Made by a program: the position numbers and the translations under genes
In this document: piece by piece, positions 250 through 48,000 of the stretch
Numbering within the stretch: position 1 is the stretch's first letter
Layout of the letters: each line of letters opens with the position of its first letter
Notes under the pieces: model-generated
Told to the model about the DNA's origin: nothing
Seen by the model: the letters and a program-made list of their open reading frames with translations, nothing else
Database searches by the model: none
Assembly (NCBI RefSeq): GCF_037975245.1
Contig: NC_092568.1
Span: 41,405,631-41,469,630, forward strand
Origin: Apostichopus japonicus
Taxonomy: Eukaryota > Echinodermata > Holothuroidea > Aspidochirotida > Stichopodidae
Length of the DNA: 64,000 bases
Direction of reading: 5' to 3'

Positions 250-3200
250 TGGCGGAAATGGTATTGTATTGGAGGCAATCATACATAAAAGGTCACGGCA
301 TGTCATTACAGATTCATCTACTAAGAAGGTACGCTTTTTTTGACATCATACAGTTATCAGTAGATATGTTCAATGTTTCCCCTCCCCTAGATATATTTGA
401 AAAGATGGTCACCAAGCTTGGTTCAAAATATTTGATGTTCTTTCTCTAAATAAACCAAGTATTTTCTCGTATAAAATGATTTGAGGGTACTCTTTGTTGC
501 TAATAACTAACTTTCAAGAAAATACTGTTGTAAAGTACAAGGGCCTGACGTTTTGATCATAGCAGGATATACTTCAGAGGCTAACTGGACATTCTATTCA
601 TAACATAAATACTGTAAATTCAACATTCTAAAAATTTTGGTCAATATACAGATAACAGACCTGTCAACCAGTTTGACCCCAAAATAGGGAGAATAACATT
701 TTTCAGGGCCAAAAAAAGAGGGAGAACAAGGGGAAAATAGGGAGGTTGGTAATTTTCAACTGAAATGATATAAATACTCCTAAATAAGTAAAGTCTACTT
801 ATGCAATACAGTGAGAGAATCATCCAATCAGTGTTTCTTGTTGTAGTTTACAGCAGCTCGCTTCGCTTTCTACAGGGTTTCTTTAGTAGGCTTCCATTTG
901 AAACGGAACAGTGGACTCTGGGTACTGCAACTTCATGGCTAGTATGCTAGATAGAGCCCCATCAAGCTTGAGACTTGACCAACTGTCTGTCTTGTTCTTG
1001 CGAACTACACTGAATAGCCTTTCCTGTTCAACGTTACTGTGGGGAATTACTAAGTATATCACTAATTGTTGGCTATTTTCAGAAATGTCGCAAGTGATGA
1101 AACATTAAAAAACCGGGAGAATAGAATATGAAACCGGGAGGCCGGGAGATTCGGGTAAAAACCGGGAGTCTCCCGGTAAAACCGGGAGAGTTGACGGGTC
1201 TGAGATAACACAAAAAGAAATTCAGGATTCTGGAAATGTTTACATTTCACTTGAAGATATTTGGTAATGGCCGTACTGAACCTTCAGAAATTGCTTTCAG
1301 AATGAAACAACTCTAGACAGCTGCTGAATATGTAGGATGTAAGATAAGGTGTTTTGGTTTCAAAATAACTGTGGAGAACTTTGAACACATACCTAGCTGT
1401 ACCACCACAGAATTAGGTAAATTACAAAACACAATAATTAAGTTCATCTGGATAGTAACACTTTTAAGCTATTACATATTCTCTCTATTTACTTATAACA
1501 TAAATTGTTACGATTGTTGAAATAAATAATTGTGAAGCTTATGTAATGTATCATTAATGCTTCACCGACATTAGCAAGAAATGATGATTCATTGAACATC
1601 ACCTAATACCAAGTTAGCGACAACTATTTGTGTTTTTCTTCGCTATTGTTGTACTGTAGCTGATGCATGTTTTGCATCTCAAAGCAATATGTCAATTCTT
1701 GTGATGCAAAAAGGTTCAGGTGACTTAAAAGGTGAAATGATTAGGGAAAGCAGGAAGAAATATTACACAATGCTAGACTTTCCCTCCCACTTGTCAAGCT
1801 GTTTGCTGAGAACAAGTAATCCACCTGTGCACAGTTTGCTAGGTTGACATTTTGATGGTCTATAATTTGCATACATATAGGCAATATATATAGGCAATAC
1901 ATATAGGTAATACATATAGGCATGATATACAATCTATTGACACTGATACAGTGCAAACTGGCACATGTTGACTTTACTTTGTGTCCGCATTAATTCACAG
2001 TTTAGGTATGTTGTCTTCCATGTCAGGCCAAAGTTCATCTTGAAAAGGAAATTTAACGGCAATGGAGAAGAAGAAGAGCCTAATTTTGACCTGACGAAGA
2101 AGGTAAATACTGGATACCTTCACTCATCTTACAGTAAGTGACTTTATCAGTTACCTATAGATATCTTCAGTCCAGTAACAGTAACCCTAACCTTACAAAG
2201 AAGGTTAATACTGGATACCTTCACTCATCTTACAGTAAGTGACTTTGTCAGTTACCTATAGATATCTTCAGTCTGTTAACAGTAACCCTAACCTGACAAA
2301 GAAGGTAAATACTGGATACCTTCACTCATCTTACAGTAAGTGACTTTGTCAGTTACCTATAGATATCTTCAGTCCAGTAACAGTAACCCTGACCTGACAA
2401 AGAAGGTAAATACTGGATACCTTCACTCATCTTACAGTAAGTGACTTTATCAGTTACCTATAGATATCTTCAGTCCAGTACCAGTAACCCTGACCTGACA
2501 AAGAAGGTAAATACTGGATACCTTCACTCATCCTACAGTAAGTGACTTTGTCAGTTACCTATAGATATCTTCAGTCCAGTACCAGTAACCCTGACCTGAC
2601 AAAGAAGGTAAATACTGGATACCTTCACTCATCTTACAGTAAGTGACTTTGTCAGTTACCTATAGATACCTTCAATCCAGTACCAGTAACCCTAACCTTA
2701 CAAAGAAGGTTAATACTGGATACCTTCACTCATCCTACAGTAAGTGACTTCGTCAGTTACCTATAGATATCTTCAATCCAGTACCAGTAACCCTAACCTG
2801 ACAAAGAAGGTAAATACTGGATACCTTCACTCATCTTACAGTAAGTGACTTTGTCAGTTACCTATAGATATCTTCAGTCCAGTAACAGTAACCCTAACCT
2901 GACAAAGAAGGTAAATACTGGATACCTTCACTCATCTTACAGTAAGTGACTTGATCAGTTACCTATAGATATCTAATTCCGTCCAGTATAACAGTAACCC
3001 TATAAATTTGGTTTCTGAATTCATCGGACAGATTATCTCTATCATTTGTGAATAGTTTCAATTACCTTTCAGTGACTCTACGGCGGAGTGTATAGCCTAG
3101 TGGTTAACGCCGGCGTCTCCCAGTCATGAGATCCCCGGTTCGATTCCCCGCCGACAGCAATGTGTGTCGTCTGGCAAGGGTGTTGTTCAATAACAACATC

Positions 3201-6200
3201 CCGACATGGACGTTAAATGGATGTGTGCCGAGAGATTGGCTACGGTCAGCTTGCGAGTCTATAAGCCTCCATGGCTTCTTTTGCGAGTTCCTGCTTGCGG
3301 GAAGATCACTATACATACATACATACATACATATACTGGATACGTCATTCAACTTACTGAAAGTTACCTATACCGTATGCCGTAAACCTTAATTGATCTT
3401 ATTTTGAGTGAGTTTGTACTGAGTTAATTCACTCATCAAATGCTAAGGTGGCAGTAACTTACTGCCACACCTCCTGCCCCCCCCCCCAGCTCCCCACCAC
3501 CTCAATCCCAAACCTTTACACTTTCTCCAAATATTGTTCAGAATTGACACCTTAATGTCTGAAATGATTTCACCTGTAGACCAGAGTTTGAAAAGTTAAG
3601 AGGATTTCCTACACACTACAGTTCATCCTTATTGTTCCAAATATTCAAAAAAAGCAACGTAATAGTCACTCATGAATATGCAAATTTCAGTAAGACATCT
3701 TAATACTTACAACTGCAAGTTCTGTGATATTTTTTTGCTATTTTGGAGCAATCTTGAAAAAAAAAAAAAAAAAAAAAATGGAGAGTTTTAAATGCATTGA
3801 AGACTTGTCCCAATCCGCGTGCGGCCATCTGAAAAAGTTAACTCTCTGTTCCTTGCAAGTGACGTTTGGTTTGTGTCGCTACAAAATGCAGATTGTGCAG
3901 TAATGAAATGTGATACCTTGTTATCTTTAGCTGGACCTGAGATGTCCATCGCTGTATCGGTTTTAGACTGTGCTGTGGGTATTGACCGCAGCTGTATGTA
4001 CTGACTGTACACTAGTGTCTAATTACCGACAGTAGCAAGCTGTGTGTGTATTTTCATGGATCGATGGTGGTTCTTTTCGCGAGTCTTCACACCCTTTAAA
4101 TCTTCCAGGAAATAAATTTTGGAGATTTGTAGCCATGTTTGGCATCTCAAATTTGGAGGAAATAAATTGTGATCTTTCTGATCATGTTCTAGCTCATCCC
4201 TGTAATAACACACAAGTTGAGTATGTAATAGTTCATTACTTTGTCATGTCATACATTCTAATTTTCTAAATAATGTTAAATGTAATATTTAAATGTAAAT
4301 CTGTATCCCCTCAGACGTACCTTACAATGTATAAGATGTAAGTGACCATCATACAGTAAGTAAACATTTGTGTCTACTGAGTGTTAACAAGCACTCCACA
4401 ATTAATATCAATTAAGCAACATAAAGTAAACAGCCTTGTAGGGAATATCCCTTTCAGACCAAAACAAAAACAATCAAACCATGTAGTAATTAATTTATAT
4501 GGTCAGAAAATACTCTTTTTTTTTCTGAATTCAAGAAAAATTTTGACTGTGAAAAATCCAAAGATATTTCTAGGATTTCTTTCTTTTTTTCTTTATGGTT
4601 GCATTTAATACTCCATAAATAGGTCAACCTGTATATCTCTGTCGGAAGAGACCTTTACTTGGTGTATTATGAACTAAAAAACCTGTAAGTTTAAAGATGT
4701 TGAATCCTCTAAAACTAGTCATGGTATTACTAGAAGAGTGTGCAAAGAAAATAATATATGGCTTGGAATGTAGCATCTAGAACAGGGTTAAGTAATTAAT
4801 TAATGTTGTGCAAATGAGTTAATCATAAACTGGAGGATTCTAATCTGTTTTGTTCTTGGATTATTTGTGGCTAATCCCTATAGCAAATCATTTACTAATT
4901 CTTAAGTCTCTAATCTGCACCTGATGTGGCCATCAAGTTAAATAATTTAGATAAAGAATCATATAGAGCTGTACTTAACATTCTTGCACTGTTTAGCACA
5001 TCAACTCTTCTCTTTTACTGTTGGAATTGTTCTTAAGATTTGTTGCCGTTCCTTCTAATTCTCCACACTCCACACCTATTCACAACAGCTAACTATTAAC
5101 ACTGTGTGGCCTGCATGTGAGTGACCTGTATGTGACCTGGATGCTCGCTTTGTGGCCTGCGTACTTCCAAAATATGCATAAATATTCAAGAGATCAGCTC
5201 AGAGCTCACCTAATAATCACAGTTATAAAGCTAAATGGTAAGGATAAATCCTATCCATAGTGCATTTCCATGAACAAAAGAACACACTGAACTACTCATA
5301 TATTATTCTCAAAGAAGAACATTTCCTAGTGTAGATGGTGTAGATATGGAAAGGGTAGAAGGTCTAAATAATAAGGACATGCTCATGTAATGATCTAAAA
5401 GAGTGGTTCTGTCAATTGAATGTTTATAGAAAATGCAGAATAGTTTTGTTGCAACTGGCTTGTTTTGCAATGCTACAGGGGTAAACGCTAAATGTTAGTT
5501 ACAACTTTCTATTTTTGTGCTTGAAGGGTGATAGTTGACACCGACTGCCTCTAGAATGCAGGTTGTGTCAGCAGAACTAAACAAGCATCTGTCCATCATG
5601 TCTATTATCTACTCCCGTTCCAAGGGACTTGTGATGCTCACTCTGACGTAACACCGACATGATTGTATGGTTACAGTCTTGATTTAAGGTGACTGGGGTG
5701 GAGAGTGGATCAATTTGTTTGGGTTACAGTCTTGATTTAAGGGGACTGGGGTGGACAGTGGATCAAGTTGTATGGTTTACAGTCTGACTTAAGGGGGCTG
5801 GGGTGGAGAGTGGATCAAGTTGTTTGGTTTACAGTCTGACTTAAGGGGACTGGGGTGGAGAGTGGATCAAGTTGTTTGGTTTACAGTCTTGATTTAAGGG
5901 GACTGGGGTGGAGAGTGGATCAAGTTGTATGGTTTACAGTCTGACTTAAGGGGACTGGGGTGGAGAGTGGATCAAGTTGTTTGGTTTACAGTCTTGATTT
6001 AAGGGGGCTGGGGTGGAGAGTGGATCAAGTTGTATGGTTTACAGTCTGACTTAAGGGGACTGGGGTGGAGAGTGGATCAAGTTGGTTGGTTTACAGTCTT
6101 GATTTAAGGGGACTGGGGTGGAGAGTGGATCAAGTTGTATGGTTTACAGTCTGACTTAAGGGGACTGGGGTGGAGAGTGGATCAAGTTGGTTGGTTTACA

Positions 6201-8119
6201 GTCTTGATTTAAGGGGACTGGGGTGGAGAGTGGATCAAGTTGTATGGTTTACAGTCTGACTTAAGGGGACTGGGGTGGAGAGTGGATCAAGTTGGTTGGT
6301 TTACAGTCTTGATTTAAGGGGGCTGGGGTGGAGAGTGGATCAAGTTGTTTGGTTTACAGTCTTGATTTAAGGGGACTGGGGTGGAGAGTGGATCAAGTTG
6401 GTTGGTTTACAGTCTTGATTTAAGGGGGCTGGGGTGGAGAGTGGATCAAGTTGTTTGGTTTACAGTCTTGATTTAAGGGGACTGGGGTGGAGAGTGGATC
6501 AAGTTGTTTGGTTTACAGTCTGACTTAAGGGGACTGGGGTGGAGAGTGGATCAAGTTGGTTGGTTTACAGTCTTGATTTAAGGGGGCTGGGGTGGAGAGT
6601 GGATCAAGTTGTTTGGTTTACAGTCTTGATTTAAGGGGACTGGGGTGGAGAGTGGATCAAGTTGTATGGTTTACAGTCTGACTTAAGGGGACTGGGGTGG
6701 AGAGTGGATCAAGTTGGTTGGTTTACAGTCTTGATTTAAGGGGACTGGGGTGGAGAGTGTATCAAGTTGGTTGGTTTACAGTCTTGATTTAAGGGGGCTG
6801 GGGTGGAGAGTGGATCAAGTTGTTTGGTTTACAGTCTTGATTTAAGGGGGCTGGGGTGGAGAGTGGATCAAGTTGGTTGGTTTACAGTCTTGATTTAAGG
6901 GGGCTGGGGTGGAGAGTGGATCAAGTTGTTTGGTTTACAGTCTTGATTTAAGGGGACTGGGGTGGAGAGTGGATCAAGTTGTTTGGTTTACAGTCTTGAT
7001 TTAAGGGGACTGGGGTGGAGAGTGGATCAAGTTGTTTGGTTTACAGTCTTGATTTAAGGTGACTGGCATCCAGCATTTTCTAATAGTTGTTTCATATCTT
7101 CACAAAGTTGTTACAAATGAATCATTCCTCCAAACTGAAATAATAATTTTGGGTTTAAATGATTAAACTTTTTAGAAACGGAAGCGAAGGGAACTTCTGA
7201 CAAGATTTCTTGGTCTGAAGCAGATCGTATCATCCATCGGCCAGAATTGAAGGCGTGGACAGAGAAGTACTGTAACTTAGGATCAATGTCATTCTGGATC
7301 GAAGAGAGGCAGCTTGATCCCCTAGATCTGGAGGATGGAGATAAAGTCAGGATCAAAAGCAACGGTGACGGACCCTTTATCTGTAAGTCAGACACCTTTG
7401 GAGCTTCATACTGAGTTGTATTTCCTATGATCAACCTACTAGCCAGTAACAATGATTCTGCCCCCCCTGCCCTCCCCCAACACTCATTTCCTATAACCAA
7501 GAATATTACCAAGCTACAATTTTTATAAAAGGTTAATTCATAACTTAACAAGTTAATGTAGACATACTGTAGATAAATGATGATAATACTTTTAATAATA
7601 TTTACACATTTTTCTTACAATCTAATATTCAATAACCTTATGTTTTATTGCAATGTTGAATGTAGTGATTATAAAATGCAACAATGTATATATTCAATCT
7701 TGTTATGTCAAAGAACATGTCAGGCATTTTTCTTAAGCAGTTATCTTCAGCTACTGGAATATCCCTTTAAGGTTGAAAAGTTTTTGCCAGGAGAGAGATA
7801 GAGAGAGTTTAACTGATAAACTATCAATTCTTTAAACTGTGCTCTTCTAAATCTTTACCTTGATGGAGTGTCAATAATGCCAGAATGCTCAACTGTTCCC
7901 TGACAAACTGTCCATTAATTCTAAATTCACTCGGACCCTTCATCAGACTCTATCTCAAAGATTGAACCTGACAGTCAAACCATCAGCAATGCTGCAGGTC
8001 CAGAAAAACAAGTAGGTGAATCCTGGACAGACAAAATCATGGATCTGAAGGCCCAGGGACTACCCCAGGCTGCTACAGGGGGAACAGAGGAGGGTGCTGG
8101 TGCCGACGATGATGAATGG
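250..8119 (+). CDS. ARPIN: ARPIN (Arp2/3 inhibitor), 3' part of gene, 4 exons seen
   Basis: ARPIN inhibits the Arp2/3 complex at the lamellipodial edge through a C-terminal acidic tail. Exons with canonical sites are 250-328, 2001-2133, 7176-7382 and 7947-8119; phases join cleanly (79, 133, 207 and 173 nt). Residues matching the vertebrate family in order are GGNG, VRPKFILKRKFNGNG, EEPNFDLTKKVNTGYLHSSY, then KTEAKGTSDKISW, GDGPF, and ESWTDKIMDLKAQ. The last visible exon ends ADDDEW just before GTGAGT, where human ARPIN ends EEWDD. The first exon, with the start codon, lies before the window. The last one or few residues must come from a further exon (see 10316) or from read-through, which would add 20 residues to a stop at about 8181. 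Intron 2 is 5 kb and packed with repeats. The identification is firm; the two ends are incomplete. Confidence 0.92.
656..1202. mobile_element. Non-autonomous DNA transposon (hAT-like) in ARPIN intron 1
   Basis: The block starts CAGACCTGTCAACC and ends GTTGACGGGTCTG, an imperfect terminal inverted repeat. It is flanked on both sides by AGATAACA (650-657 and 1203-1210). Boundary placement is ambiguous by two bases, so the duplication is 6 or 8 bp. The 3' part carries repeated CCGGGAG words and a CCGGGAGTCTCCCGG palindrome. No transposase frame is visible, so it would need another element to move. Confidence 0.65.
1211..2000. other. ARPIN intron 1, remainder
   Basis: AT-rich intron sequence. 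A short run of TATAGGCAATACATATAGG-like words lies at about 1876-1922. I see nothing else I can name. Confidence 0.5.
2087..2990 (+). repeat. Minisatellite built from the ARPIN exon 2/intron 2 junction, about 9 copies
   Basis: The period is about 101-102 bp. The first unit starts inside exon 2 at the codons for DLTKK and runs over the last 45 or so exon bases, the donor A|GTAAGTG at 2134, and about 55 intron bases. Eight further copies follow, at about 2190, 2291, 2391, 2491, 2591, 2692, 2794 and 2896. Each keeps the exon-like words (AAGAAGGTAAATACTGG, CACTCATC) and the complete donor. Copies differ by only a few substitutions, so the array is young or homogenised. Reading past the first donor gives TAC AGT AAG TGA, an immediate stop. 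Confidence 0.93.
3081..3338 (+). mobile_element. tRNA-derived SINE with (CATA)n tail
   Basis: A tRNA-like head at about 3082-3153 has an A box (TAGCCTAGTGG, 3093-3103), a B box (GGTTCGATTCC, 3137-3147) and pairing ends GGCGG/CCGCC. A roughly 150 bp body unlike a tRNA follows, then a CATA tetranucleotide tail at about 3309-3335. This is classic SINE structure and is not a working tRNA gene. It lies in ARPIN intron 2. Confidence 0.8.
3787..4100 (+). mobile_element. MITE family M1, copy 1
   Basis: One of three copies in the window. The ends are TTTAAA followed by a degenerate six bases and then GAAGACTTG, and the mirror image CGAGTCTTC, CACACCC, TTTAAA. The core includes AAAAAGTTAACT, GTGACGTTTGG, TTGTGTCGCTACAAAATGCA and CCGCAGCTGTATGTACTGAC. 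Compared with the other copies it lacks about 60 bp near the 3' end. TTTAAA or TTAA may be the target-site duplication, which would hint at a piggyBac-like group. It has no coding capacity. Confidence 0.75.
4101..5660. other. ARPIN intron 2, unassigned stretch
   Basis: AT-rich intron sequence with no repeat, RNA or coding signal I can support. Confidence 0.5.
5661..7067 (+). repeat. Minisatellite, period about 57 bp, about 24 copies
   Basis: The unit contains TTAAGGGGACTGGGGTGG, AGAGTGGATCAAGTTG and TTTGGTTTACAGTC. Two main subtypes (CTTGATTTAAG and CTGACTTAAG) and three variants of the join (TTGTTTGG, TTGTATGG, TTGGTTGG) alternate in a partly regular order, which suggests amplification of two-unit blocks. 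It ends about 110 bp before ARPIN exon 3. Every unit carries GGTTTACAG, which resembles a 3' splice site. Confidence 0.92.
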
Positions 8120-13283: not shown

Positions 13284-13484
13284 AGAGAATAAGGCCAATT
13301 TTGGACCATTTGAGATAACCTCTTGAGCCAATTTTGGACCATTTGAGATAACCTCTTGAGCCAATTTTGAGATAACCTGTTGACCCCTTGAGCAATTTTG
13401 AGATAACCTGTTGACCCCTTGAGCAATTTGGGATAACCTGTTGACCCCTTGAGCAATTTGGGATAACCTGTTGACCCCTTGAAG
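13284..13484 (-). repeat. Minisatellite, unit about 30 bp, 6-7 copies
   Basis: Two unit types lie side by side: two copies with CCAATTTTGGACCATTTGAG, then four or five with GATAACCTGTTGACCCCTTG. The minus-strand open frame across it is only a by-product of the repeat. Confidence 0.85.
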
Positions 13485-17400: not shown

Positions 17401-20400
17401 CTTAGTCAACCTCACATAAACTTTGAAGTAGAATCTAAAAAGTTACTCAAATTTGACATCAGTACTAAAGGACAACGATACCACAAAATGGGCATCAGGA
17501 AAACTAAACTGAACATGCAGGCATAGTAAGAAGTTTATTGTTAAGGTTCAATGACTCAAACAAATTTACCTGCAACGTTGTCCTTTCTTGACCTTACTTT
17601 TGTCTGTGCTTTGGTGACATTCTGAAGAACATTATGACTAGAAAAGCAAAAAGGAACACAAGAAATGATAACATAGTATCACACAATATACAGATTAGGC
17701 AGAAACTCTATTCAGATGATATCAGAGAAAAAAAACCCACTTTGTATTGCAAGTGCTGTGGTACATATCTGACTAATTCTCAACTGCTTGTCAAACAACT
17801 GCTTTTAACAACTTGGAGATCTCAATGCAGAAGATAAAAATGTTGTCAACAAGTTAGCACTATTGTTTAATTAGTTTTCATAACATGGACATGACAATGC
17901 TATTACAAACAACACACAGTAAAGGTATAGAAATACTTGTGAATATTTCACTTAGAAGAACTATACACAAATTCTATGTGTGATTTATAAGATGCAAACA
18001 GGCATTTACCAATGTTTGCCTAGTATAACTGTTGTTGCTATTATTACTTCTTTTGCATTAACTCCTGTAAGTTTAATTGTCTTTCACATGTCAACATTTA
18101 AAACATTGTTTGTCACACTTTGAGAAACAGGATCATGCCTTGATTAAATTCAGTTGATTAGTTGGACTAATTTGCACATAACAGCACTCATTAATGTCTG
18201 GTAATACTCTACATGTGAGCTTTTTAACTCCATCAATATTTATAACATATCTGCAATAGAGAGGATCTTACCTAAAATCACCCATAGCAAACTTAGTTTC
18301 AGCTAAGGATAATGAGGCATTCTTCATCACTTCACCCATTAAGGATTTTGTCTGGAAGAAACAGCAAAATATCAAACCAATTTGAAAGATTACTCAATAT
18401 AATGTGAAACATTTTTAATTTTTAGAGTTAAACAATACAACTTCAAGGGGTAGAAACAAGGCAGCAAGGGAAGTTGTTACCAGGGTATATAACTTAGTGT
18501 TTCTACTTTGCATAGCAGTTTGAAGGATTACATGCCTTATCTACTGCAAATAACTGTGAAGCCTTAGATTCTGTAAACAAGAGATAGAGATGCTGTCGTG
18601 AAAATTGTGTCAAGGCGAGAAAAAAGTATTAGCAAACTGATATCTACCACATCATGCCAGTTTGGCTATTTTTTAGAAAAGTAACAGGGCCTAATATTTT
18701 AATTCTATGATCTTCTGACACACTAAGACAGTTTTTTGGGGTTTAATCTGTTTTTTGGGGGTTTTGTTTGTACTTAAATTGAACATTTCTGGTGAGCAGT
18801 TCAACACTATGTGATATCTAATCAATTTATTTCTTGATCATTCCCAGACTGTGAATAGTGAAATAAAATGTTGGCAGCAAACACACATTAGGCTACTAAC
18901 AGCCACCAGTCATACCCCACCCAATAGCTTTACATTGACTTGGACTACAAGATAACCAGATGGACCTAAATGTCTTGAGTCATGAGAGGGGTGAAGGGAC
19001 AACAGAAGGTTTACAACAAGTTTCTTGGGTCTCAGTAATGATGGGAGGGTGCTTGTTACAACAATCAATTTGCACAGAGTATTATATGCTGATCAGCTCA
19101 GGTGTTACTCCCATCACAGACTCTCACACTAAGTCAGAGTGGATAAAATGCTTGAAACAAATAATATCCACACTCAGTCAGAGTGGATATATACCTTGAA
19201 ACAAATTATATCCACACTCAGTCAGTGTGGAAGTATTGCTTGAAACAAATTATATCCACACTCAGTCAGAGTGGATATAATGCTTGAAGCAAATTATATC
19301 CACACTCAGTGTGGAAGTATTGCTTGAAACAAGTTATATCCACACTCAGTCAGAGTGGATATATTCCATGAAACAAATTATATCCACACTCAGTCAGAGT
19401 GGATATAATGCTTGAAGCAAATTATATCCACACTCAGACAGTGTGGAAGTCTTGCTTAAAACAAATTATATCCACACTCAGTCAGAGTGGATATATTCCA
19501 TGAAACAAATTACTGTATATCAACACTCAGTCAGAGTGGAAATATTGCTTGAAACAACTACTGTAACTTCAGATTAACAATTCTGCTTCAACATTGTATC
19601 TATAGAGAAAGTTCTGAACTTTTGACAGTGTACTTTCTACAATGGTCCATCGGAACAAAGGAATGAGCACACATTAACTTGGTTTATGATATTATAATAC
19701 TGTACCTCAATAATTTATGATATTATCATACTGTACCTCAATAATTTGATATTATCATACTGTACCTCAATAATTTATGATATTATAATACTGTACCTCA
19801 ATAATTTATGATATTTTAATACTGCACCTCAATAATTTATGATATCATAATATTGTACCTCAATAATTTATGATATTATAATACTGCACCTCAATAATTT
19901 ATGATATTATAATACTGTACCTCAATAATTTATGATATTATAATACTGTACCTCAATAATTAATGATATTATAATACTGTACCTCAATAATTTATGATAT
20001 TATAATACTGTACCTCAATAATTTATGATATTATAATACTGTACCTCAATAATTTATGATATTATAATACTGTACCTCAATAATTTATGATATTATAATA
20101 CTGTACCTCAATAATTTATGATATTATAATACTGTACCTCAATAATTTATGATATTATAATACTGTACCTCAATAATTTTCTTTAGAATCTGTCTAAACC
20201 TTAATGTCAAGGCATCTGCTTTCTTCTTCAGCAAACTGTGGCCTTTCTCAGCTCCTTTTAGACGAGCCTTCATTGTGGTTAGAGCCCTATAACAAGCAAT
20301 CAAACAAACAGCTTATATTACTCTTTACATATGACAACTTATTTCTGTGTACTTTCACACTGTTAAAGTGGATGTGTTGGATATAGTAAAACATCTTATT

Positions 20401-25358: not shown

Positions 25359-25570
25359 CGTCGGGTGGCTTCCAATTCAACATTTAACTCAAATTTGGAA
25401 TCTTTTCAATTTAGAAAGTCATTTCCTATGGGAAACCGTAAATTGCTCCTGGATGAAAAACTCACCTTACTATGCGGGGAATCGAACTCCGAACCTCCCA
25501 ATTGCTAAGCATAATTTCTTCAGATGCCACTGCCTTTATTCACTCGGCCAACGTACCGAGATGGTAGTAC
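25358..25570 (-). mobile_element. tRNA(Leu/Ser-like)-derived SINE, copy 1
   Basis: On the minus strand the head reads GTACGTTGGCCGAGTGAATA...GGAGTTCGATTCCCCGC, an A box, a long variable-arm-like segment and a good B box, as in Leu or Ser tRNAs. The body then has GGTGAGTTTTTCATCC, TACGGTTTCCCATA and GAAAAGATTCCAAATTTGAG. The same body occurs at 54930-55112 on the other strand. It is inserted in the LINE. Confidence 0.75.
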
Positions 25571-26195: not shown

Positions 26196-26570
26196 ATTAA
26201 AGGGTGTAAAGACTCGCGCAAAAAGAAACGTCTAATGCCGGGAATCTAACCTAGTTTCGAATGAGGTGTAACAGAAGTGTTAGACACCACCATCGATCCC
26301 AGAAAATACACACAATAGTTTGCTACCGTCGGTAATTAGTCACAAGTGTACAGTCAGTACATACAGCTGCGGTCAATACCCACAGCACAGTGTACAAACG
26401 ATACAGCGATGGATATCTCAGGTCCAGCTAAAGATAACAAGTTATCACGTTTCATTACTGTCTGCAGTTTGTAGCGACACGAACAAAACGTCACTAGCAA
26501 GCAACAGAAAGTTAACTTTTTTTCAGATGGCCGCACGCAGTTCGGAACGAGTCTTCAACGCCTTTTATAA
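26196..26570 (-). mobile_element. MITE family M1, copy 3 (longest)
   Basis: Inverted relative to copies 1 and 2. Ends on the plus strand are ATTAAAGGGTGTAAAGACTCG and CGAGTCTTCAACGCCTTTTATAA, about 20 bp imperfect inverted repeats. The core has GGTCAATACCCACAGCACAG, GATGGATATCTCAGGTCCAG and AACTTTTTTTCAGATGG in reverse orientation. It gives the best view of both ends of the family. Confidence 0.8.
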
Positions 26571-29519: not shown

Positions 29520-32500
29520 TTAGTCTACTTCCTCCATCCTGGACACATCCTCCTCATCTCCTTCAAGTGGTGGGAGTTCCTCAGTTGCTGGTTCTTCCAT
29601 AGTTGGGTCTTCTTCATCAATACCTGTCAAGTTGAAATAAGTAGAACAACAAACAATATTAAAGATATCCCCGGTGGTAGTCAATGTAACACACAATATA
29701 AAGATATTACAAGTGGTAGTCAATGTAACACACAATATAAAGATATTACAAGTGGAAGTCAATGTAACACACAATATAAAGATATCCCTAGTGGTAGTCA
29801 ATGTAACACACAATATTAAGATATACAAGTGGTAGTCAATGTAATAAAACAGACGGCTTTTAAGGCAGAAATAACCAATTTGTCTCAGCTTCAAGGCTCA
29901 CACTTAAGAAGCATACATAATATCAATGCCAAGTTTACTGCAACAGATGTAGCTGCCAGGAAAGTGCTCTAGCCATAGGGAAGTCTAAAGACTGCCCTCA
30001 CTGTAGCATACCCTTCACTAGCACTCAGACTATCAGCCCACTCAAGGAAACCCTTGGTTGGACAGACGAGTACTGTCAATGTTCTTCCATAGGCACCATC
30101 CAGACCTCCACCATCACCTCACCAGACAGCATCGAGAGGTAACAAAACACCTTGCGGCAGAGTGCACCTCTCAAAGCACATTCCCGTGAAAGTGATTAAG
30201 GACGGACGCATATTGTGCAGGAAGATGGATGAAATGTGAACCTAGAATTAACAAATATTGGGAGATTCTCTATTCCAGGAGGTCAATGAAGGGCATTTAG
30301 AGTAAGGTGGGTCAACTTACCGAGTCCGAGCTTGATCATTCTGTAGATTCTGCCTGTGTGGGTCTGTGGGTCTTCGAGACTGAATCCAGAAGAGAGCAGA
30401 GCGGTCTCAAATAAGAGCATGACAAAGTCCTTGACAGATTTATCATTTTTGTCTGCATCAACCTTCTTCCTCAGAGTCTCTATGATGGGATGATCTGGGT
30501 TGACTTCTAGATGTTTCTTTGCCGACATGTAGCCCATGGTGCTGGTGTCTCTCAGTGCCTGAGCCTTCATGATTCGTTCCATGTTAGCTGTCCAACCATA
30601 CTGGCTGGTAACAATACAGCATGGTGAGCTGACCAACCTGTTGGACACTGTCACCTAAAAAGATGGGGAAATAAAAGAACATTATTAACTATCAATTTTA
30701 AAGCTGCCCAAGTCATGCAATGAAGCAATTTCCCCTCGATGTTTTCCTTTAGACATAAGAATTAAGCAAGTACATTGTTTGAAAGACTGGAAATGAATGA
30801 ACCCTGATAACTTGGCATAGGAGGAAGGATTAAAGTAGTTCAACTTTTTTTGGGAGGGGGGGGAGAGGGGTTAACATTGAAACACTTGTTCTAAAACATG
30901 TCAAGTTTGGCAAAAATGATTTACCTTTTCAATTTTCTTGTCCAGAATATCTTTGATTACTTTGCAGAGGTTCTCTAACTTGGCATTGGCCTCTTCCCTC
31001 TTTTTCTTTTCCTCCTCATCTTCTGGAAGCTCCAAGCCCTCCTTGGTTACGGAGACCAGTGTCTTGCCATCAAACTCCTTCAGTTGTTGCACACAGTATT
31101 CATCAATAGGCTCCACCATGTACAAAACTTCAAATCCTCGCTTCTTAACTCTCTCAACAAAAGCAGAGTTGGCTACCTGGTCTCTGGTTTCACCTACAAG
31201 AAGAGCAAACAAAGATGAATGCTTACAGTTGATTTGACACCTGTGGTTTGCACACACTGAAGTATGCACTACTACAGACCCAGCATAACTGCTTTGAAGT
31301 GGGGACACAAACAAAAGTTGGGCTATATATTATTACGTCAGGAAGATCATACAATGTTACTACATCAAAGAGCTTAGGGTTAGGGAAATAACAAGAGTGT
31401 ACCACTTACTGCAATCACACACCAATAACACAAGGATTTGTTCTTTCTATCCCCAATCCCCCTTTCTAAGTTAATACCTGAGTGATATGTGGCTTCAAGT
31501 ACTAAGCCCCCTCCCTGTACCCCGCACCCCCCTGCTGTGACTACCTGGATGAATGTGTATCATGGTTGACTTCAGCATCCATACATTGTACTCACCTGTG
31601 ATATAGTAGATCTGAGTCTGGTCCCCATACCCCCCCCCCCCCCCTGTGACTAGCTGGATGAATGTGTATCATGGTTGACTTCAGCATCCATTTTGTACTA
31701 ACCTGTGATATAGTAGATCTGAGTCTGGTTCTCCTTCATCCTGGAGACATAGTCTTTGAGTGAGGTCAGCTCGTCTCCAGAGCTGGATGAGTGGTACCTC
31801 AGGAATGAAGCCAGTTTCGATCTGTTCTGCGAGTCCTCATGAATACCAAGCTGTCACCAAAACATCAAACAAGAGCAATATAAGAAATGCTGTCTGCATC
31901 TGATTGTCCACACTAACAATATATTCAACAGGGTAATGAAGACATGGCAACAGTAACCTTTATTGGCCAATTCATTCCTACTTAGTATTTATTGCACAAT
32001 GAAGACCAACAGGGGCAAATATCCCAGTGCAAACAAGGCATTGTGAGACCATTTTACTCCTGATGAGATGAAAGACCTCACACCAATACACTAAGTTTCT
32101 CTCAAATCTATGACAATCTTTGCAAAAGTATATTAACCAATTGGTTATTTCCTGGTATTCCTTATGTTGCCACTAACCTTGAGGTTCTTGCTGAATTGCT
32201 CGTAGAATTTCTTGTAGTTATCGTTGTCTTCTGACAGCTCTACAATCAGTTCCATGCATTTCTTGACGATGTTCTTGCGGATGACCTTCAGAATCTTGCT
32301 CTGCTGGAGCGTTTCACGAGAAATGTTGAGAGGCAAGTCTTCTGAATCAACCACTCCCTTGACAAAGTCTGCAGAGTGAAAACAAAGGTAACAGCAGTTT
32401 TAACACAGAGAACTACTTTGTTTCATGTTCATTAAAGTAATCACATTGAAAATAAGAAAGGAAAACCAAGTGATTGGTTTCAGATCTTATCGTCACTATT

Positions 32501-35500
32501 ACATCACACATTAAAAATGACAGCCCTGGACAAGACTTGGAAAGTAAACCCATCAAGATTTCCTTGGTTGTTTTGAGGGAAGTTGTTTATCACAAAGATC
32601 TCCACCTAACCAGCCAATGCTCATAGTCTGGACTTTGTTCCTTCTTTATTATATAGGGCTGTGGCAGAATGAAGATGTACTTACTGAGGTATTCTGGGAT
32701 CAGATCCTCACAGTTGTCCATGATGAATACTCTCCTCACATACAGCTTGATGTTGTTCTTCTTCTTCTTGTTCTCAAACAAGTCAAATGGCGCCCTCTTT
32801 GGTACAAACAAGAGTGCACGGAACTCCAACTGACCTTCCACTGAAAAGTGCTGTTACGAAAAAAGGAAAGTCTTGGAATTATGTTTCAATTCACCGAAGC
32901 AGTTCAGACTGAAACTACCAACGAAATTTAGGCTGAATGTAGGCCTAAACTTTCACAATTATGACAACTTACTAAAAATGCATTTTGCTAAATGATAACA
33001 CACATCAGTCACTGGTACAGGCTTTTGAAAGCAGCCCAATATATTCACCGATGATAAACAGTAATAGCCAGCTTATGTTTAATACTGAAATCATGCTCTT
33101 TCTATGAGCAGCCCAATAATATTCCCTGATGATAAGCAGTAATACATGTCTTATGGTACTGAATCATGCTCTTTCTATGAGCAGCCCAATAATATTCCCT
33201 GATGATAAGCAGTAATACATGGTTTATGTTTGGTACTGAAATCATGCTGATTCTATGAGCAGCCCAATATATTCAACGATGATCAACAGTAATAGCCGGC
33301 TTATGTTTGATACTGCAATCATGCCGATTCTATGAGAGCAGCCCAATAATATTCCCTGATGATAAGCAGTAATACATGGTTTATGTTTGGTACTGAAATC
33401 ATGCTGATTCTTTCACTGTTGATTGTTGACCTAGTTGATCAAATGTTCATGTTTTTAATGCCAGTTCTTTTTTTCTCTGCTGGCAAATGGAAATATTCAC
33501 TGGCATTTAGCCGAGTAAATAGCCAAAATTTAATGATGCCTGTACTGGATAAACTGTGGTATAGAAGCCCAGAGTGTGATTTTAATTAGAGTTTAATTAA
33601 TACTATGAGGTCATGAATATTCATTTACCTTGACAGCTAAATGTTCTTCCCAATCATTGGTAAGACTCTTGTAAAACTCTCCATATTCTTCGCTAGTGAT
33701 ATCGTCAGCATTCCTCGTCCAGATGGGCTTGGTTTTGTTCAGCTCCTCCTCGTCAATGTACTTTTCCTGCAACAAAAGAATAATGTGAAGCTTGAAATCT
33801 TTCTAATAGCCCAGCGTTGACATTTAAAATTGCAAGTGAAACATCAATTAATACAGGTATATCCTGTGTTAACACAGACTCAACCCTGATATGCCCAGTA
33901 TACAAGCACACCCATCTGAGGCACTTATTATTCTGTGGAGGGCAACCAATGGATTGGCAGGTAAATATTCCACACCAGAATCTATTACCTCTAAATATGG
34001 TTGTATTAAATCTGTGGGCCAACTTACCCTTCAAATGCTCCTTTTAATTTGTGACATTATATAAATCACTCTATTCTTCCCTTTGTGGGAAAGAAAAGAT
34101 AAATAACTTCTGCAAATTATTTCTCAGTTTTTTCTTACAGTTCTTACCTTGATTTTCTTAGTCTTTTTTTCCTTTTTCTTTCCATCCTCATCGTCTTCAA
34201 CATCTTCAATTTCTGGAGTATCTTCGTCTTTCTTCTCCTCCCCTTCTTTCTCTTCCTTCTCTTCCTCCTTCTCCTCCTCTTCATCATCACTAACCTCTTT
34301 TTCTCGTTCTTTCTCCAACTAACAAAAAGGCAACAGAATCATCATTAAGGAACCAGCAGAGACTGCACTACAGAACAGAACACACACTCCAATGCTTTGT
34401 CAGAGCATAATTTACAAATGGCAACCCAAATCCCAATGAAATTTCTCTGTTGAAATATATCTGTTCATTTTCAAGTATTTTTTACCAAGTTGAATACTCT
34501 TAAAGAGAAGATATCTGAACCTACCTGCAGTTTGATAGGATAGCCAATGAACTGACTGTGTTTCTTGACGATGTCCTTGATTCGTTTTTCCTCTGTGTAC
34601 TCGACCATGTCTTCTTTAAGGGTCAGCACGATCTGAGTGCCACGCCCAAAGTCTTCTGGAGCTAAAAGAGAAATGTATCAAATAATTAATGACTTTTATT
34701 CAAGTTTCATGTGCATTTGTTTTCTTAATTCAGTTTTGAGATATTTTATCAGAGTTCTCCATACTTTAACTGTATATTACCTTGCCCGTCCTGCAAAGAC
34801 CACCAAAGAGAACATTGGTATACAACCCACTAAGCGAGTAATTATTCCTAGTGGACCATCAGGTACTAAGGGATGGCTAGAAATGCTTGAATCAAAGGGT
34901 GAGTCCCTCAGTAACTAGCCGAATTAAATGCTGCTTTACAGTGACAATGGGTGAGTTCAAAACAGTGAGGAAGGAGAGTGAACAACCACTAACAAAACTG
35001 GTCAAAGGTTGATAAATTGGCCTTCACTTTTTACTATACCACGTAGACTGTGTCTAGGTCCCATAGCCAGGAATGTACCACACCATCTTAAACAGGGATG
35101 AGACTGAGCCGGGGAGAAAAAATCTGAAATTTATCTATCGCCGCCCTGGAGGAGGGGTTTAAGGGGGGTGTCCCCCTCCCCTTTAGAAATTTTTTGTCAG
35201 GTAAGGAGGGCTTAGATGCAAAATGGTGGACTCTAGATGGAATCTATCACATCACGTAACTCGCCAAAAAAAGTGTGGAATTTCTGCTTGTATAATTTAT
35301 CCATTAGCTTTTTTGAACCAAAAAAAAGGCTTTTTTGCTTGCTTTGTGCTACTTGATTCCACCACTGGTCAAATTCGGTGTTCCTTCCCTTCACAGTCCA
35401 GCATGTTCAGCAAAAAAATAAAAATAAAAAAATAAATAAAAAATAATAAAAAACGCGAATTACGAGAAAAAACGCGAAAAAACGCGGAAGAGTCTCATGC

Positions 35501-37231: not shown

Positions 37232-39124
37232 CTGTAAAAATACAATGAATAAATTATAATGCCATGTGAAGAAATCACCTGCTCCAATTGCGATAAAAAG
37301 AGAACCTACATCACAAATTAATTTGGTTGGGATGTCCTTTAGTGTGTATGCTGCATCACCACCAGGGGATTTTGGTTGGGATGTCCTTTAGTGTGTATCC
37401 TGCATCACCAGCAGGGGATAAGGGGGTCACACTATTTGCAATCCTGTAAGATTCCCTCAACATTGTAGGCTGTACTATAGTGCACACAGGAGCCATTAAC
37501 ATCCACCATTAATCCTTACCCTGATCACTTTGCAGGTTTTCTTGCAATAGTTAATTATTCATGGTTGACCACTTCATTGGCAATCCTAATTATTTTTTGA
37601 AAATGAAGATTTCTGTTGGGAAGCTTCATAATTATCAACATTGTTTTCTGAAGATTCTTCACAAGAGTCACCAATGCCACTGTACACAGACAGTGGCATA
37701 AGGACCAAGCTCTGTCATCTTAACAAGTTTAATTAACTCCAGAGAAGTGCTCTATGCAGTGGTAATTATGGAAAACCCCACACTTTTCTAACAGCTTATT
37801 TTTTGCTGGAGTTTTGCGGTGGGGAACCCATCTATGTCTGTATTAGTTAAACACTTTTGAGATGGTAGTTATATGGCGAAGATGTTATTCTTTTTTTCCC
37901 TTGACTGCGGCTCCACCTGAAATAGAGACCTGAAAGGTGGCTTAAAATTCTACAATTGTACCTAAATCCAAGGACTAGAAAGAATGTTATGTACTTTCCA
38001 TGTACACAAAGCCATAAAAGGCAAGATGCACAAATACAAAAAATGAAGCACCACTGGTTTTGGGTTGCAATAAAAAGGAAGTAACTTAATGGCAAAAGCC
38101 TTGGCACTTTAAGTTTAAATTAACTATAAGTTGGATTGCAAACTAACATCTTCTTGCCAATTGGCTATTGTGTACCTTTCCAATTGCATCATACTATTGA
38201 AACTGCTAAGGGAAATTCCAGCAGCTATTAACAGTATTATTACTAACTTCAACAGCCGATATGGATTATCATAGTATCTGGTTGAAATGAGAATGATCTG
38301 GAAAGATCGCTGAGCTAACAGTGACATGTTGCGAAGAGTGATTAGGATTGGGTGGAATATGCAATCATTTACATGAAATAAGAATTTAGTTTACAAATTG
38401 TTGGTACACATGTCACAAGTCACCATAGCTGGCCGATTGTGTGATCTTCATTTTGCATACAAATTGCAAATGTGTGTAAATGAGTTAATATTTCCAATGA
38501 ATCTGAATTTTTTGCAGTTTTAAAGTTAAAAGTTGAGAGTTGCACAATTTGGCCCCAACACAGGCCCTAAAACAATTGAAATTTTCCAACTGCAACTTGC
38601 AAGGCTAGAATTTTGCCTCACCCAGTTTCTGCAGTTCTTGGCTCGGGATTACATCCTGATGTACACAATAATGCTGTCAGCAATTGAAAAAATATTAATG
38701 TGCGTAACATTACAAAAGATGTGAATTAAAACAACATATTACTGTTAAACTAGCGATTTGTTAGTCCTAACATTAACAAAGCAAACTTTCATTTGGAAAC
38801 GCTGGGAGCACATGTCAAGACAAAAGGCATGGTCTCAATTTAATTCTGTCAGCAATTGAAAAATATTAATGTGCGTAACATTACAAAAGATGTGAATAAA
38901 CAAATCATATGACTTTTAAACTAGCGATTTGTTAGTTCTAACATTAACAAAGCAAATTTTGATTTGGAAACACATGTCAAGACAAAAGGCATGGTCTGAA
39001 CATAGCTCCGGGTTCATGCCGACAAGCCTCAGCCTATTGAACGATACTCAATTTCACCTCATTACAACGTGAAAAATGATTTTTGAAGCTTCTTTTCTCT
39101 TAACAATTGCATTTGTGCTCTTAC
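37232..39124 (-). other. HSP90 5' UTR intron
   Basis: Runs from the donor after the non-coding exon (GTAAGAG at 39124) to the acceptor TTTTTACAG directly before the ATG. Contains a two-copy repeat of about 50 bp (GGTTGGGATGTCCTTTAGTG, 37323-37424) and a 160 bp duplication at 38674-38998. Confidence 0.75.
38674..38998. repeat. Direct duplication of about 160 bp near the HSP90 5' exon
   Basis: Copy 1 is 38674-38835 and copy 2 is 38846-38998. Shared words are CTGTCAGCAATTGAAAAA, TTAATGTGCGTAACATTACA, AACTAGCGATTTGTTAG and CAAGACAAAAGGCATGGTCT. Copy 2 lacks 9 bases. Confidence 0.9.
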
Positions 39125-39577: not shown

Positions 39578-39599
39578 AACGGAAGTGGCTTTGATCCTT

Positions 39600-40109: not shown

Positions 40110-40117
40110 CGTCAGAG

Positions 40118-40478: not shown

Positions 40479-40486
40479 CGTCAGAT

Positions 40487-42867: not shown

Positions 42868-43080
42868 ACGGGCGCGTAGCTAGGAATTTTCCAAGGGGGG
42901 GGGGGGACGAAGTTTGTAGGCAAACTATTTAAGCGTAGCGCCACCATAAGTTGGCGCGAAGCGTACAAGGAAATTTTGGCCGAAAATGCCTCCCAGATCG
43001 CTGGAAATGACACTTCCCAGGCCTTGTTAGTTGTATCTAAGCATTTTCTATTTTGAAATTACTAGCGATATTATAAAAAA
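42868..43080 (+). mobile_element. G-rich repeat family R2, copy 2
   Basis: GGGCGCGTAGCTAGGAATTT, a G run, AAGCGTAGCGCCACCATAAG, TTGGCGCGAAGCGTAC, then CCTCCCAGATCGCTGGAAAT. The last words recur at 47848-47880 (CTCCCTAGGTCGCCGGAAAT), which fixes the family's order. Confidence 0.6.
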
Positions 43081-43444
43081 TATGCTCGGGGGGGGGGGGG
43101 TGGGGGGTGGTCGTCCCCTTCCCGAAATGCGTCATGTTCCCCGATGACTCGGTCGAGTTCGAGAACAGCCGCAGTTGGTTTCATAGCACAATTGTTTAAG
43201 GCGTTTGTACACACACACACGCGTTATGATAGACCATATATAGTATATATATATATATAGATACATTAGTGAGAGAGGAAAAATGGAAACGTCAAAAATG
43301 GAGTTGTCGGTGTAAGGGGTAGGGTGAGGTGCACGCCCCTTCCGAAATCCTCGATCCGTCACTGGCTACCCTGTATATGTAATAGGGATCAGCGCTATAA
43401 TGATGTCACTGTTCCTTGTTCTCATCCCGGTGTCTTGGCGTTTT

Positions 43445-43580
43445 TCTTTTACTCCCTCCTTTTCTCCTTTTTCTCTCTTTCTTCTTTTTTTCTTTTCCCT
43501 TCCTTCCTCTCCTCTTCCCCTTTCCCCCTCTTTTTTCCCCCTTTTTCTTCTCTTTTTTCTCTCCTCTTTTTCTTACCCGG
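43445..43580. repeat. Homopyrimidine tract, about 130 bases
   Basis: Almost only C and T on the plus strand, in irregular CTTTTTCTC-type runs. All frames stay open as Ser/Phe/Pro/Leu strings, which explains the overlapping open frames here. Long enough to form a triplex in principle. Confidence 0.85.
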
Positions 43581-43625
43581 CGGGCGCGCGCCCCCAACAC
43601 CCCCCCCCCCCTGGATACGCGCCTG

Positions 43626-45047: not shown

Positions 45048-48000
45048 ATGATGGAGGATATATCCCTCGCTGGCGTAACCACAACGGAAAGTATTACATC
45101 TGGAGGAGACTTGAATGTCATCCAGGAATCTGCAGAGATTCACCAAGAAGATGCAATCTCTCAAGATATGATGTCAGAAATGAGTCTGCCTCTTCCACCT
45201 TCAGAGTATGAGCTTAAGACATCATCCAACGGTATCAAGAAAACCGATAGTGGTTACAGCGGAAGAACGGTTTACGCCGATCTCAAGTTTGAAGACTTCG
45301 AGCAAGCTTCAAAGGTATAGTAATCCCTGTTTTACTTTCATGAAACAACTTTAATGGTTACATGTTGTAGCAAAGGTATAGTACACTCTGTTTCACCTTC
45401 CTGAAACAAAGTTAAAATGTTAGAGGTTGTATAGCAAAGGTATAATACTCTATGTTTCAATGTCATTAACAAATTTAAATGTTCAAATGTTGTAGCAAAG
45501 ACGGGTTGACATGCATATCTGGTCACAAATTCTATTCAGGGATCCATGATATGAGAGCGAACAATTATCATTACACGATAAGCATTTAGGATACCAGTCA
45601 CATTTCTAGGTTTATAGAGTGGCTGTTGTCTTGATGTTGGACTCGAACACAAAAATTACAGCAAATGTGACCCACGAGTTACGTAATTTACCCAGGTATA
45701 TTTGTAGATATCTCAACAAGCATTAATCCAACGAAGTACTCTTTTAGTGTCACTGATTGAATATATGACTGGATCATTGCTATAGGGCAATTCCATGAGA
45801 AAGTGGACATGATACCCAAAAAAGTGTGTGATAATAGTAAATTTAGTGTCAAATGAAAGCTCAGAGTCCATATTTTCCAGAATCAGGTTCAGAAATGCAA
45901 TTTTCATGCATTTTGGAATAAAAATATATGGGTGATGAAATTTCAGGAGTTGATACAGAAAATTGGATAATTGGTAATAAAAACTATTCGTCACTGCTAA
46001 TTGATAGCGAGTATATAAATGATATCAGCCACTACCAGAGAGTATAGATCATGGAAAACTGAATGGATAATATTTTCGCCCCTTTTCCTCATTGGTTCCG
46101 CTTCAATGGCCTTCGGTATTTTGCCACTTGAAATGTCCTTCCGTTACCGAAAATACCACTTTTTTTAAAGTTTTTTTCAGGAAAAGTTGCAGCATGATTA
46201 AAATGAAAGTTCATCTTCAAAGCAAGTTTAGATTGGCCAACAAAATGAAATAAAAAACCCTTGTCCGTTTGCTGTCCTTCCATTACCGACCTCATTAATA
46301 TTCATATTTCAAAAATGGGAAGGGTTTGTGTAAAAAAAAATATGTGGAAATTGAAGTGCGTAGTTATAGGTATAGTCAATGATGACAATTATTTGTTATA
46401 ATTAATGGGGATATTCATGATATACTTGTTCAAATGTCAGAAAATTAGTCCCAATGTCCTTCCGTTACCATGGAATTGCCCTTAGTTAAACAATTACAGT
46501 GGTGGTGTCGCGCGCGAGAGAGAGAGGGAGAACAACTTACAGCATGATGAGCCCTCCCCCACCCAGGCCCAGCCCGACCCACCCTCCCGCACCTCAGAAA
46601 GAAAAAAACAATATCTAAATATCATTGCGACTCTAACTATATGTGTGGCGTTAGCAGTTGTATCTACATTGGGACAATTGGGAACGTATTATCTGTTCGT
46701 TCGATCATCGATTAGAGTACTTCCTTATCATTGATTACCAACCTTCCACCCTACCCTACCCGAACCCCTCCCCCCCTCCAACGCCAGCGGGTACTTATAC
46801 TAGCATCATAGTGTGCCGGGCACGCACCAGGTCTACCAATGTAGTATGTTAGTGTTAAACGTTTAATATCTCCCTCCCAACACACAGACTGGAGGATTGA
46901 AACTAGGTCCCTCATTCACTGACTTGGACAGTCTTGACGTCTCATGTGTTGACGATGATGAAATGGAAACAAAAGATAATATGAGCAAAGATGATGACGA
47001 CAATAACGCGACAGAGGCAGGAAATCCATCCTTCCATCCTCTTCAGAGGAATGAGAGGAAAGAAACAGAATCAAAACGACGGTATAACCCACGTGAATCG
47101 ACTCGCAACCTACTGTCGGAGGCCGACGACGATGACAATGATAGTGAACATTCGGTAGTTGTTCGGCAACCATCGGTACTTATTCGACGACAACCGTCAT
47201 CTTCCGGGATGGTGGTCTTCCCCTATGATCCTGAGTCCAAAGAGACACTGGAGCGGCTTTCTGTCGAGCATCGCTCCCATTCACAGCTTAAGAGGTTAAT
47301 TAACAAGGAACTCACCAAGATTACCAGAGATGCTGACATTAGAGTTCAGAGTCTGAATGGCGGACTGTCGTACCCTGCCTTCCTCAAAGGTGAGCAGCGG
47401 GCTGTAGTCTATTTAAAACTTACAAATGTCCTTAGTAACATTGACCAGTTGAAGCTGATGAAAGCGAATCAAATACAAAAGAAAGAAAGAAAAAAGAAAG
47501 AAAAAAGAACGTAAATTACCAATATTATTACACCATGCAGGGACACCAATTTGCGTAGATAAATGTTGCTTAAAGCAGGCGTGACGGGGGGGGGGGGGGT
47601 CAGAGGGGAATACTGCCAGCATCCCGGGGGGATTAAAGGGCCCGTGAAATTGTGGGTAAAGAACAGTGTATTTTCGTTTCCATAATATACATAAGGCAAC
47701 AGGAAGGCCCTGTGGCATAATTGCGTACTGGACGTCAGTGGAGGAGCTAGAGGTATTGGTCAGAGGGGGCGAGAATGGTCTGTAGGGGCGCTTTCGACAC
47801 TATCTAAGCGGAGCCACAGGTTGGCGCGTAGCGTACAGAAATTGAGTAAAGATACTCCCTAGGTCGCCGGAAATGACCCTTTCTGGGCCTGGCTAATTTG
47901 CAGACAAACGAAGAATAAATAGGTGTCATCGCCAAATTACACCAACAAAATGTGACAAATGTCAATAGGTAGATGAGAGCGCAATAAAAAAAGTCAATAA

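What the first reader, a model, noticed from the sequence alone, without database searches (positions are those of the whole stretch)
2087..45500. Splice-donor-anchored tandem arrays in four of the five genes
In ARPIN, ATP6V1D, HSP90 and the GRAM gene the tandemly repeated unit straddles a 5' splice site: exon tail, donor, intron head. Unit lengths differ (about 101, 31, about 110 and 63 bp) and sequences are unrelated, so these are independent events with the same geometry: the array always starts at the true junction and grows into the intron. In each case the frame hits a stop at or just after the first donor (TGA, TGA, TAG, TAG), so use of a spare donor would truncate the protein. Possible explanations are a mutational bias to duplicate at donors (for example an R-loop or U1-linked break), selection for tolerated duplications that keep a donor first in line, or a regulated unproductive-splicing device. 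Acceptors show no such arrays in this window. Tandem duplication containing a splice site has been proposed as a route to new introns, but a repeated donor-side pattern in one 64 kb region is, to my knowledge, not a described class.
Basis: partly seen in the sequence, partly recalled or inferred. Interest (0 to 1): 0.87.

Follow-up and report, generated by a model that had tools for sequence, protein, structure and literature searches.

The report
Minisatellites spanning four splice donors
In an animal genome stretch rich in tandem repeats, four genes carry a small tandem repeat that copies the end of an exon together with its splice-donor signal; the geometry is real and resembles repeats already known in human CBS and IFI6, and the simplest reading is that such copies are tolerated because the first donor is still the one used.

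Summary
With gene models rebuilt here (28 donors, 29 acceptors), four tandem arrays contain the 5' splice site of their gene: ARPIN (101 bp x 9), ATP6V1D (31 bp x 16), HSP90 (about 107 bp x 2) and an unnamed "GRAM" gene (61-64 bp x 3). No acceptor lies in an array. Three donors are fixed by protein homology; the GRAM one rests on coding signal, and no GRAM domain was found.

The claim of a new class is weaker. If each array is one founder unit placed at random, 0.37-0.78 donor hits are expected; four gives P 0.0006-0.008 by choice of rows, for a pattern picked after the fact in one window. The acceptor contrast has Fisher P 0.052. "Starts at the true junction" is partly built in.

Precedents: the 31-bp CBS VNTR and the IFI6 minisatellite. 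Best reading: ordinary minisatellite formation plus tolerance. Under exon definition the upstream of identical donors is used, so donor-side duplications are nearly silent. No genome of this organism was held; the genome-wide test remains open.

The parts
2001..2133 (+). ARPIN exon whose last 45 bp are the head of the array
   Evidence: In-frame model; aligns with Arpin of PDB 25yr_B across the junction; Pfam PF10574
2089..3002 (+). ARPIN array: 9 copies of a 101-bp unit (45 exon + 56 intron bases), each with donor ACA|GTAAGT
20169..20286 (-). ATP6V1D exon whose last 11 bp are in the array
   Evidence: Aligns with V-ATPase subunit D of PDB 7u8o_H across KKIIE|TK
19683..20179 (-). ATP6V1D array: 16 copies of a 31-bp unit, donors GAG|GTACAG and variants
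31703..31850 (-). HSP90 exon whose last 27 bp are in the duplication
   Evidence: Aligns with HSP90-alpha of PDB 7rxz_A across IYYIT|GET (139 of 727 residues sent)
31518..31729 (-). HSP90 tandem duplication: 2 copies, donors CAG|GTTAGT and CAG|GTGAGT 107 bp apart
45049..45314 (+).
   Evidence: Open frame and coding composition; no Pfam match and no convincing PDB match
45310..45500 (+). Array of 3 copies (61-64 bp) with donors AAG|GTATAG, AAG|GTATAG, AAG|GTATAA; 5 bp of exon

Best explanation
These are four independent minisatellites (one of them a bare tandem duplication) that formed by ordinary slippage or unequal exchange in a repeat-rich genome and happened to include a 5' splice site. They persist because donor-side duplication is close to silent: in genes read by exon definition the upstream-most of several identical donors is used, so the mature mRNA is unchanged and every further copy is just intron. 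Shown here: the geometry, the independence of the units, GT donors in every copy, intron contexts above 250 nt, and no array at an acceptor. Inferred: formation by slippage, use of the first donor in this species, and removal by selection of arrays that change the mRNA (exon interiors, acceptors). Rare use of a spare donor would keep an in-frame stop in the mRNA and lower output, as reported for CBS copy number.
For: Three of four donors are fixed by protein alignments across the junction, so the first copy is the donor that gives the conserved protein. The window is dense in tandem repeats (60 rows in 36 clusters), and 9 of the 25 arrays that I kept lie inside introns without touching a donor, so donor arrays are part of an ordinary population. 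Donors lie in arrays about as often as any base (2.4-2.8 expected, P 0.22-0.31) or any non-exonic position (171 of 1395). Flanking introns of the array exons are 1672 and 5042 (ARPIN), 2786 and 1817 (ATP6V1D), 327 and 509 (HSP90), 1573 downstream of GRAM exon 1, above the 200-250 nt limit quoted for exon definition (PMC9225289, passages). In that paper minigenes with two identical strong donors 52 nt apart used the upstream donor exclusively. Arrays near acceptors stop 24, 78, 90 and 109 nt short. Units unrelated. Non-donor intronic arrays are not rich in donor-like motifs (1 of 9 with P below 0.1).
Against: Donor hits exceed random founder placement: 0.37-0.53 expected, P 0.0006-0.002; 0.49-0.57, P 0.0008-0.0018 by constrained re-placement; 0.53-0.78, P 0.002-0.008 with all 36 clusters. 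[quoted passage not shown] Zero of 29 acceptors is uninformative (0.39-0.55 expected). Intron length says little, since 25 of 28 introns exceed 250 nt. Two of four array donors are weaker than all 24 others; with weak identical donors the longer minigene exons were skipped. Two short arrays do lie wholly inside coding exons (34221-34282, 56893-56930). No RNA shows which donor is used; the splicing rule comes from human data and reverses under intron definition.
Confidence: 0.58

Rival explanations
1. A mutational bias duplicates DNA at splice donors (for example an R-loop or U1-linked break), so arrays are seeded there more often than elsewhere.
For: 4 donor hits against 0.37-0.78 expected; 0 of 29 acceptors.
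Against: Acceptor expectation is only 0.39-0.55, so zero is uninformative; Fisher P 0.052 for 4/28 against 0/29. The other 9 intronic arrays are not centred on donor-like motifs. Pattern chosen after the fact in one window.
Confidence: 0.15
2. A functional device: spare donors either tune output through unproductive splicing and decay, or back up a weak donor.
For: Use of any later donor keeps an in-frame stop (27 nt or less into the intron in all four). Two of four array donors are weaker than all 24 others. More CBS units are reported to lower CBS activity (passage of PMC5188458).
Against: Stops that close are common: 12 of 23 others within 30 nt. The other two array donors are ordinary in strength (8.65 and 9.9 against a median of 8.98). 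The genes and units are unrelated. Donor bases of ARPIN copies 2-9 are unchanged (0 of 72) but the neighbouring exon-derived bases are nearly as invariant (6 of 336), and ATP6V1D copies 2-16 show 3 changes of 135 at the donor against 0 of 105 and 6 of 225 beside it, so no selection on spare donors is visible.
Confidence: 0.08
3. [quoted passage not shown]
For: Known route (passages of PMC2891723).
Against: The acceptors of the four introns lie 324-4173 bp beyond the arrays and do not resemble the units (shuffle P 0.16-0.85).
Confidence: 0.03
4. Coincidence or assembly error: four placements in one window picked out by a reader scanning for patterns, or wrongly built arrays in the assembly.
For: P 0.0006-0.008 in one window of a large scan may turn up by chance (inference). 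No reads were available.
Against: Copies carry point variants, and the HSP90 and GRAM arrays have diverged (91% and 73% matches), which simple assembly duplication would not give.
Confidence: 0.14

Closest known systems
Human CBS 31-bp VNTR, c.1444_1467+7(16_21)
   Same: Unit straddles a 5' splice site (24 exon + 7 intron bases, counted from its name), 16-21 copies, at the exon 13/intron 13 boundary (passages of PMC2630376 and PMC5188458)
   Different: One gene in human; copy number varies and is reported to affect activity. Here four genes, no population or RNA data. The original paper was not held.
Human IFI6 (6-16, G1P3) minisatellite
   Same: Repeat units supply several splice donors (passages of PMC4526556, citing Turri et al. 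1995)
   Different: Two downstream units are used in IFI6 mRNAs; use is unknown here. The original paper was not held.
Internal tandem repeats at exon-intron boundaries of human segmental duplications
   Same: Minisatellites at exon-intron boundaries that affect splicing (abstract and passages of PMC2812944)
   Different: Found by comparing paralogs; a donor-specific geometry is not tested in the passages seen.
Intron gain by tandem duplication of AG/GY
   Same: Tandem duplication that includes a splice-site motif (passages of PMC2891723)
   Different: Here the introns' acceptors are unrelated to the unit.

Membership tests
Donor-spanning minisatellite (CBS/IFI6 type) | Repeat unit contains exon tail, donor and intron head | tested here: met
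   45, 11, 27 and 5 exon bp inside the arrays; copies listed
Donor-spanning minisatellite (CBS/IFI6 type) | Several tandem copies each with a GT donor | tested here: met
   9, 16, 2 and 3 donor copies, all GT; HSP90 is only a duplication
Donor-spanning minisatellite (CBS/IFI6 type) | Copy number varies between individuals | not testable with these tools
   No genome held for the window and no second individual
Donor-spanning minisatellite (CBS/IFI6 type) | Downstream donors appear in mRNA | not testable with these tools
   No RNA data
Intron gain by tandem duplication | Acceptor side of the intron is a copy of the unit | tested here: not met
   Acceptor against unit, shuffle P 0.16-0.85
Donor-targeted duplication bias | Excess of arrays at donors over acceptors and intron positions | tested here: inconclusive
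   P 0.0006-0.008 over founder placement; no excess over base-by-base placement (P 0.22-0.31); acceptor contrast Fisher P 0.052; one window
Donor-targeted duplication bias | Other intronic arrays centre on donor-like motifs (expected if the motif seeds duplication) | tested here: not met
   1 of 9 with P below 0.1, mean P 0.49

The most novel reading that the evidence does not exclude
In this genome, tandem duplications are seeded at splice donors several times more often than at any other intron position, through a transcription- or U1-linked process that acts at used donors but not at donor-like motifs elsewhere. Donor-repeat introns would then be a recurrent, clustered class.
Probability: 0.12. 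Interest if true: 0.8.

Novelty: new member of a known kind. Interest (0 to 1): 0.4.

Why it matters
If donor-spanning arrays prove common and donor-specific genome-wide, they would give natural series of near-identical competing donors (2, 3, 9 and 16 copies here) to test which donor the spliceosome picks, and would separate mutational bias from selective tolerance at splice sites. If they are not in excess, they are further examples of a kind known from CBS and IFI6.

Tried and rejected
An exact 35-base piece of an interspersed repeat found nothing in viral contigs, so no related animal DNA was obtained; the other collections were not scanned for it. Position-based null (circular shift of junctions): 2.4-2.8 donors expected, P(4 or more) 0.22-0.31, and zero acceptors P 0.04-0.08; 171 of 1395 non-exonic and 1 of 200 exonic positions have a nearby copy. 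I do not use this as the main test because it counts expanded copies rather than founder units. Intron birth by duplication: rejected. Donor-motif-seeded arrays: not supported. GRAM identity: no Pfam match at E 0.001 or 10; one PDB hit at E 0.37. tRNA scan: none. Ten paper searches ran. Those found 0 papers; one search was the only one naming echinoderms. One search listed 20 of 51 papers and I opened one. Seven papers were opened, all by passages, plus one section of PMC9225289; one search showed only a reference line.

Rows and slips: the 25 arrays were picked by hand from the 60 rows. I dropped redundant periods, runs of short units and several weak or A-rich rows, and kept two overlapping rows at 13294-13482. 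One search repeats the count with all 60 rows merged into 36 clusters, giving P 0.002 (smallest period) to 0.008 (largest period). In some searches the last ARPIN donor was set at 8118 instead of 8119. It touches no array and was corrected; one search gives corrected donor scores, and its stop starts at 60 nt, so the counts stand. In one search the figures 3/4 and 2/23 were typed in.
Full report
What is there. Pfam gives Arpin (PF10574, E 5e-65), ATP-synt_D (PF01813, E 1.3e-68) and PIH1 (PF08190, E 9e-59, first 231 residues sent). HSP90 is identified by a 139-residue stretch against the PDB. The models hold 28 introns (28 donors) and 29 acceptors, one acceptor belonging to an intron cut by the window start. 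One donor (HSP90 39125) is in the 5' untranslated part, and the last ARPIN intron is a hand prediction.

The four arrays. Tandem Repeats Finder lists them at 2089-3002, 19683-20179, 31518-31729 and 45310-45500. Each contains the donor of its gene and reaches 45, 11, 27 and 5 bp into the exon. Donor copies number 9, 16, 2 and 3, spaced 101, 31 (once 29), 107, and 61/64 bp. Protein alignments across the junction fix the first copy as the donor that yields the conserved protein in ARPIN (25yr_B), ATP6V1D (7u8o_H) and HSP90 (7rxz_A). For the fourth gene there is no homologue: Pfam at E up to 10 gives nothing and the PDB one hit at E 0.37. Its first exon is coding by composition (0.44 per codon; noncoding 99th percentile -0.14), including the last 141 nt before the junction (0.47; 99th percentile 0.01). 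The frame meets a stop three bases into the intron, so the donor must be at or before it. This member is the least certain. Donor strength, scored with a matrix from the 24 other donors, is 8.65 (ARPIN), 9.9 (HSP90), 2.58 (ATP6V1D) and 0.81 (GRAM) against 5.18 or more for all 24 others; so two of the four are the weakest donors of the window.

Is it more than chance? For the main null, each array counts as one founder unit, because copies made later by expansion do not raise the chance that a given junction was captured. The 25 arrays of period 10 or more that I picked (15 of period 25 or more) give 0.37-0.53 expected donor hits; four has P 0.0006-0.002, and three (without GRAM) 0.007-0.017. 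Re-placement with exon overlap limited to one unit (at most 60 bp) gives 0.49-0.57 expected and P 0.0008-0.0018. With all 60 rows in 36 clusters, 0.53-0.78 are expected, P 0.002-0.008 for four and 0.017-0.045 for three. By contrast, donors lie in arrays no more often than any base of the window (2.4-2.8 expected; P 0.22-0.31) or any non-exonic position (171 of 1395 against 4 of 28). The pattern was chosen by eye from the same data, so this is suggestive, not proof. The acceptor contrast is weak: 0 of 29 where 0.39-0.55 were expected, Fisher P 0.052 against donors.

What follows from the geometry. 'Starts at the junction and grows into the intron' is what a donor-containing array looks like once the first donor is called the exon end. 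'Stop at or just after the donor' holds for three of four (2, 3 and 5 nt); the fourth is 27 nt in. Among 23 other coding donors 2 have a stop within 10 nt and 12 within 30 nt. The contrast within 5 nt (3/4 against 2/23) has Fisher P 0.013 but is post hoc.

Mechanism. (1) Units are unrelated to each other, so the events are independent. (2) The acceptors of these introns do not resemble the units and lie 324-4173 bp away, so the introns were not born from the duplication. (3) Nine other intronic arrays do not centre on donor-like motifs (1 of 9 with P below 0.1), which speaks against a motif-driven origin though not against a process limited to used donors. (4) The introns next to the array exons exceed 250 nt (327 to 5042), as do 25 of 28 introns here. 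In that regime, minigenes with two identical strong donors used the upstream one exclusively, and near-equal natural donor pairs used it in 60% of events; with weakened donors the shorter exons kept that preference and the longer ones were skipped (PMC9225289, passages). A donor duplication would therefore usually leave the mRNA unchanged. For acceptors the same paper finds a lean to the upstream site that shrinks under exon definition, and concludes that sites closest across the exon are then favoured (section 9), so acceptor duplications need not be much worse. [quoted passage not shown] Arrays that come close to acceptors here stop 24, 78, 90 and 109 nt short. Two short arrays lie wholly inside coding exons (34221-34282 and 56893-56930, with 18 among their periods), so exon interiors are not free of repeats. 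I read the whole as ordinary minisatellite formation with tolerance at donors. Shown: geometry, independence, GT in every spare donor, intron lengths. Inferred: first-donor use in this species, and purging elsewhere.

Selection on the spare donors is not visible: ARPIN copies 2-9 differ at 0 of 72 donor-site bases, 6 of 336 other exon-derived bases and 35 of 400 intron bases, the last figure inflated by the broken ninth copy; ATP6V1D copies 2-16 differ at 3 of 135, 0 of 105 and 6 of 225.

Comparison with the known. The CBS 31-bp VNTR, named c.1444_1467+7(16_21) in PMC2630376 (passages), has the same geometry, and more units are said to lower CBS activity (passage of PMC5188458). The IFI6 minisatellite gives three mRNAs, two downstream repeat units serving as donors (passage of PMC4526556). 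PMC2812944 (abstract and passages) reports 27 intron modifications from tandem repeats at exon-intron boundaries in human segmental duplications. So the kind is known; four cases in one 64-kb window is unusual. My searches of the open library showed me no genome-wide test of donors against acceptors, but I opened seven papers only, and the library lacks most subscription journals.

Limits. No genome, reads, RNA or related species were available.

Noticed in passing
5663-7066: A 53-bp minisatellite of about 27 copies in the same ARPIN intron ends 109 nt before the acceptor; three further arrays end 24, 78 and 90 nt before acceptors (29648-29844, 1871-1922, 37322-37419), none overlapping.
   Followed up: partly
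19683-20179: In the ATP6V1D array, copies 1-6, 8 and 9 nearest the exon match the consensus, and 8 of the 9 substitutions lie in copies 10-15, as if expansion were recent at the exon end.
   Followed up: partly
20169 and 45314: Two of the four array donors score below all 24 other donors of the window (2.58 and 0.81 against 5.18 or more).
   Followed up: partly
34221-34282 and 56893-56930: Two short tandem arrays, with 18 bp among their periods, lie wholly inside coding exons of HSP90 and the PIH1 gene.
   Followed up: no
3790-4071, 22086-22411, 26209-26565: Three copies of an interspersed repeat of about 245-330 bp, 87-89% identical, two on one strand and one inverted.
   Followed up: no
25371-25474 and 54996-55100: A second dispersed repeat of about 105 bp, 89% identical, inverted.
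   Followed up: no
   Followed up: partly
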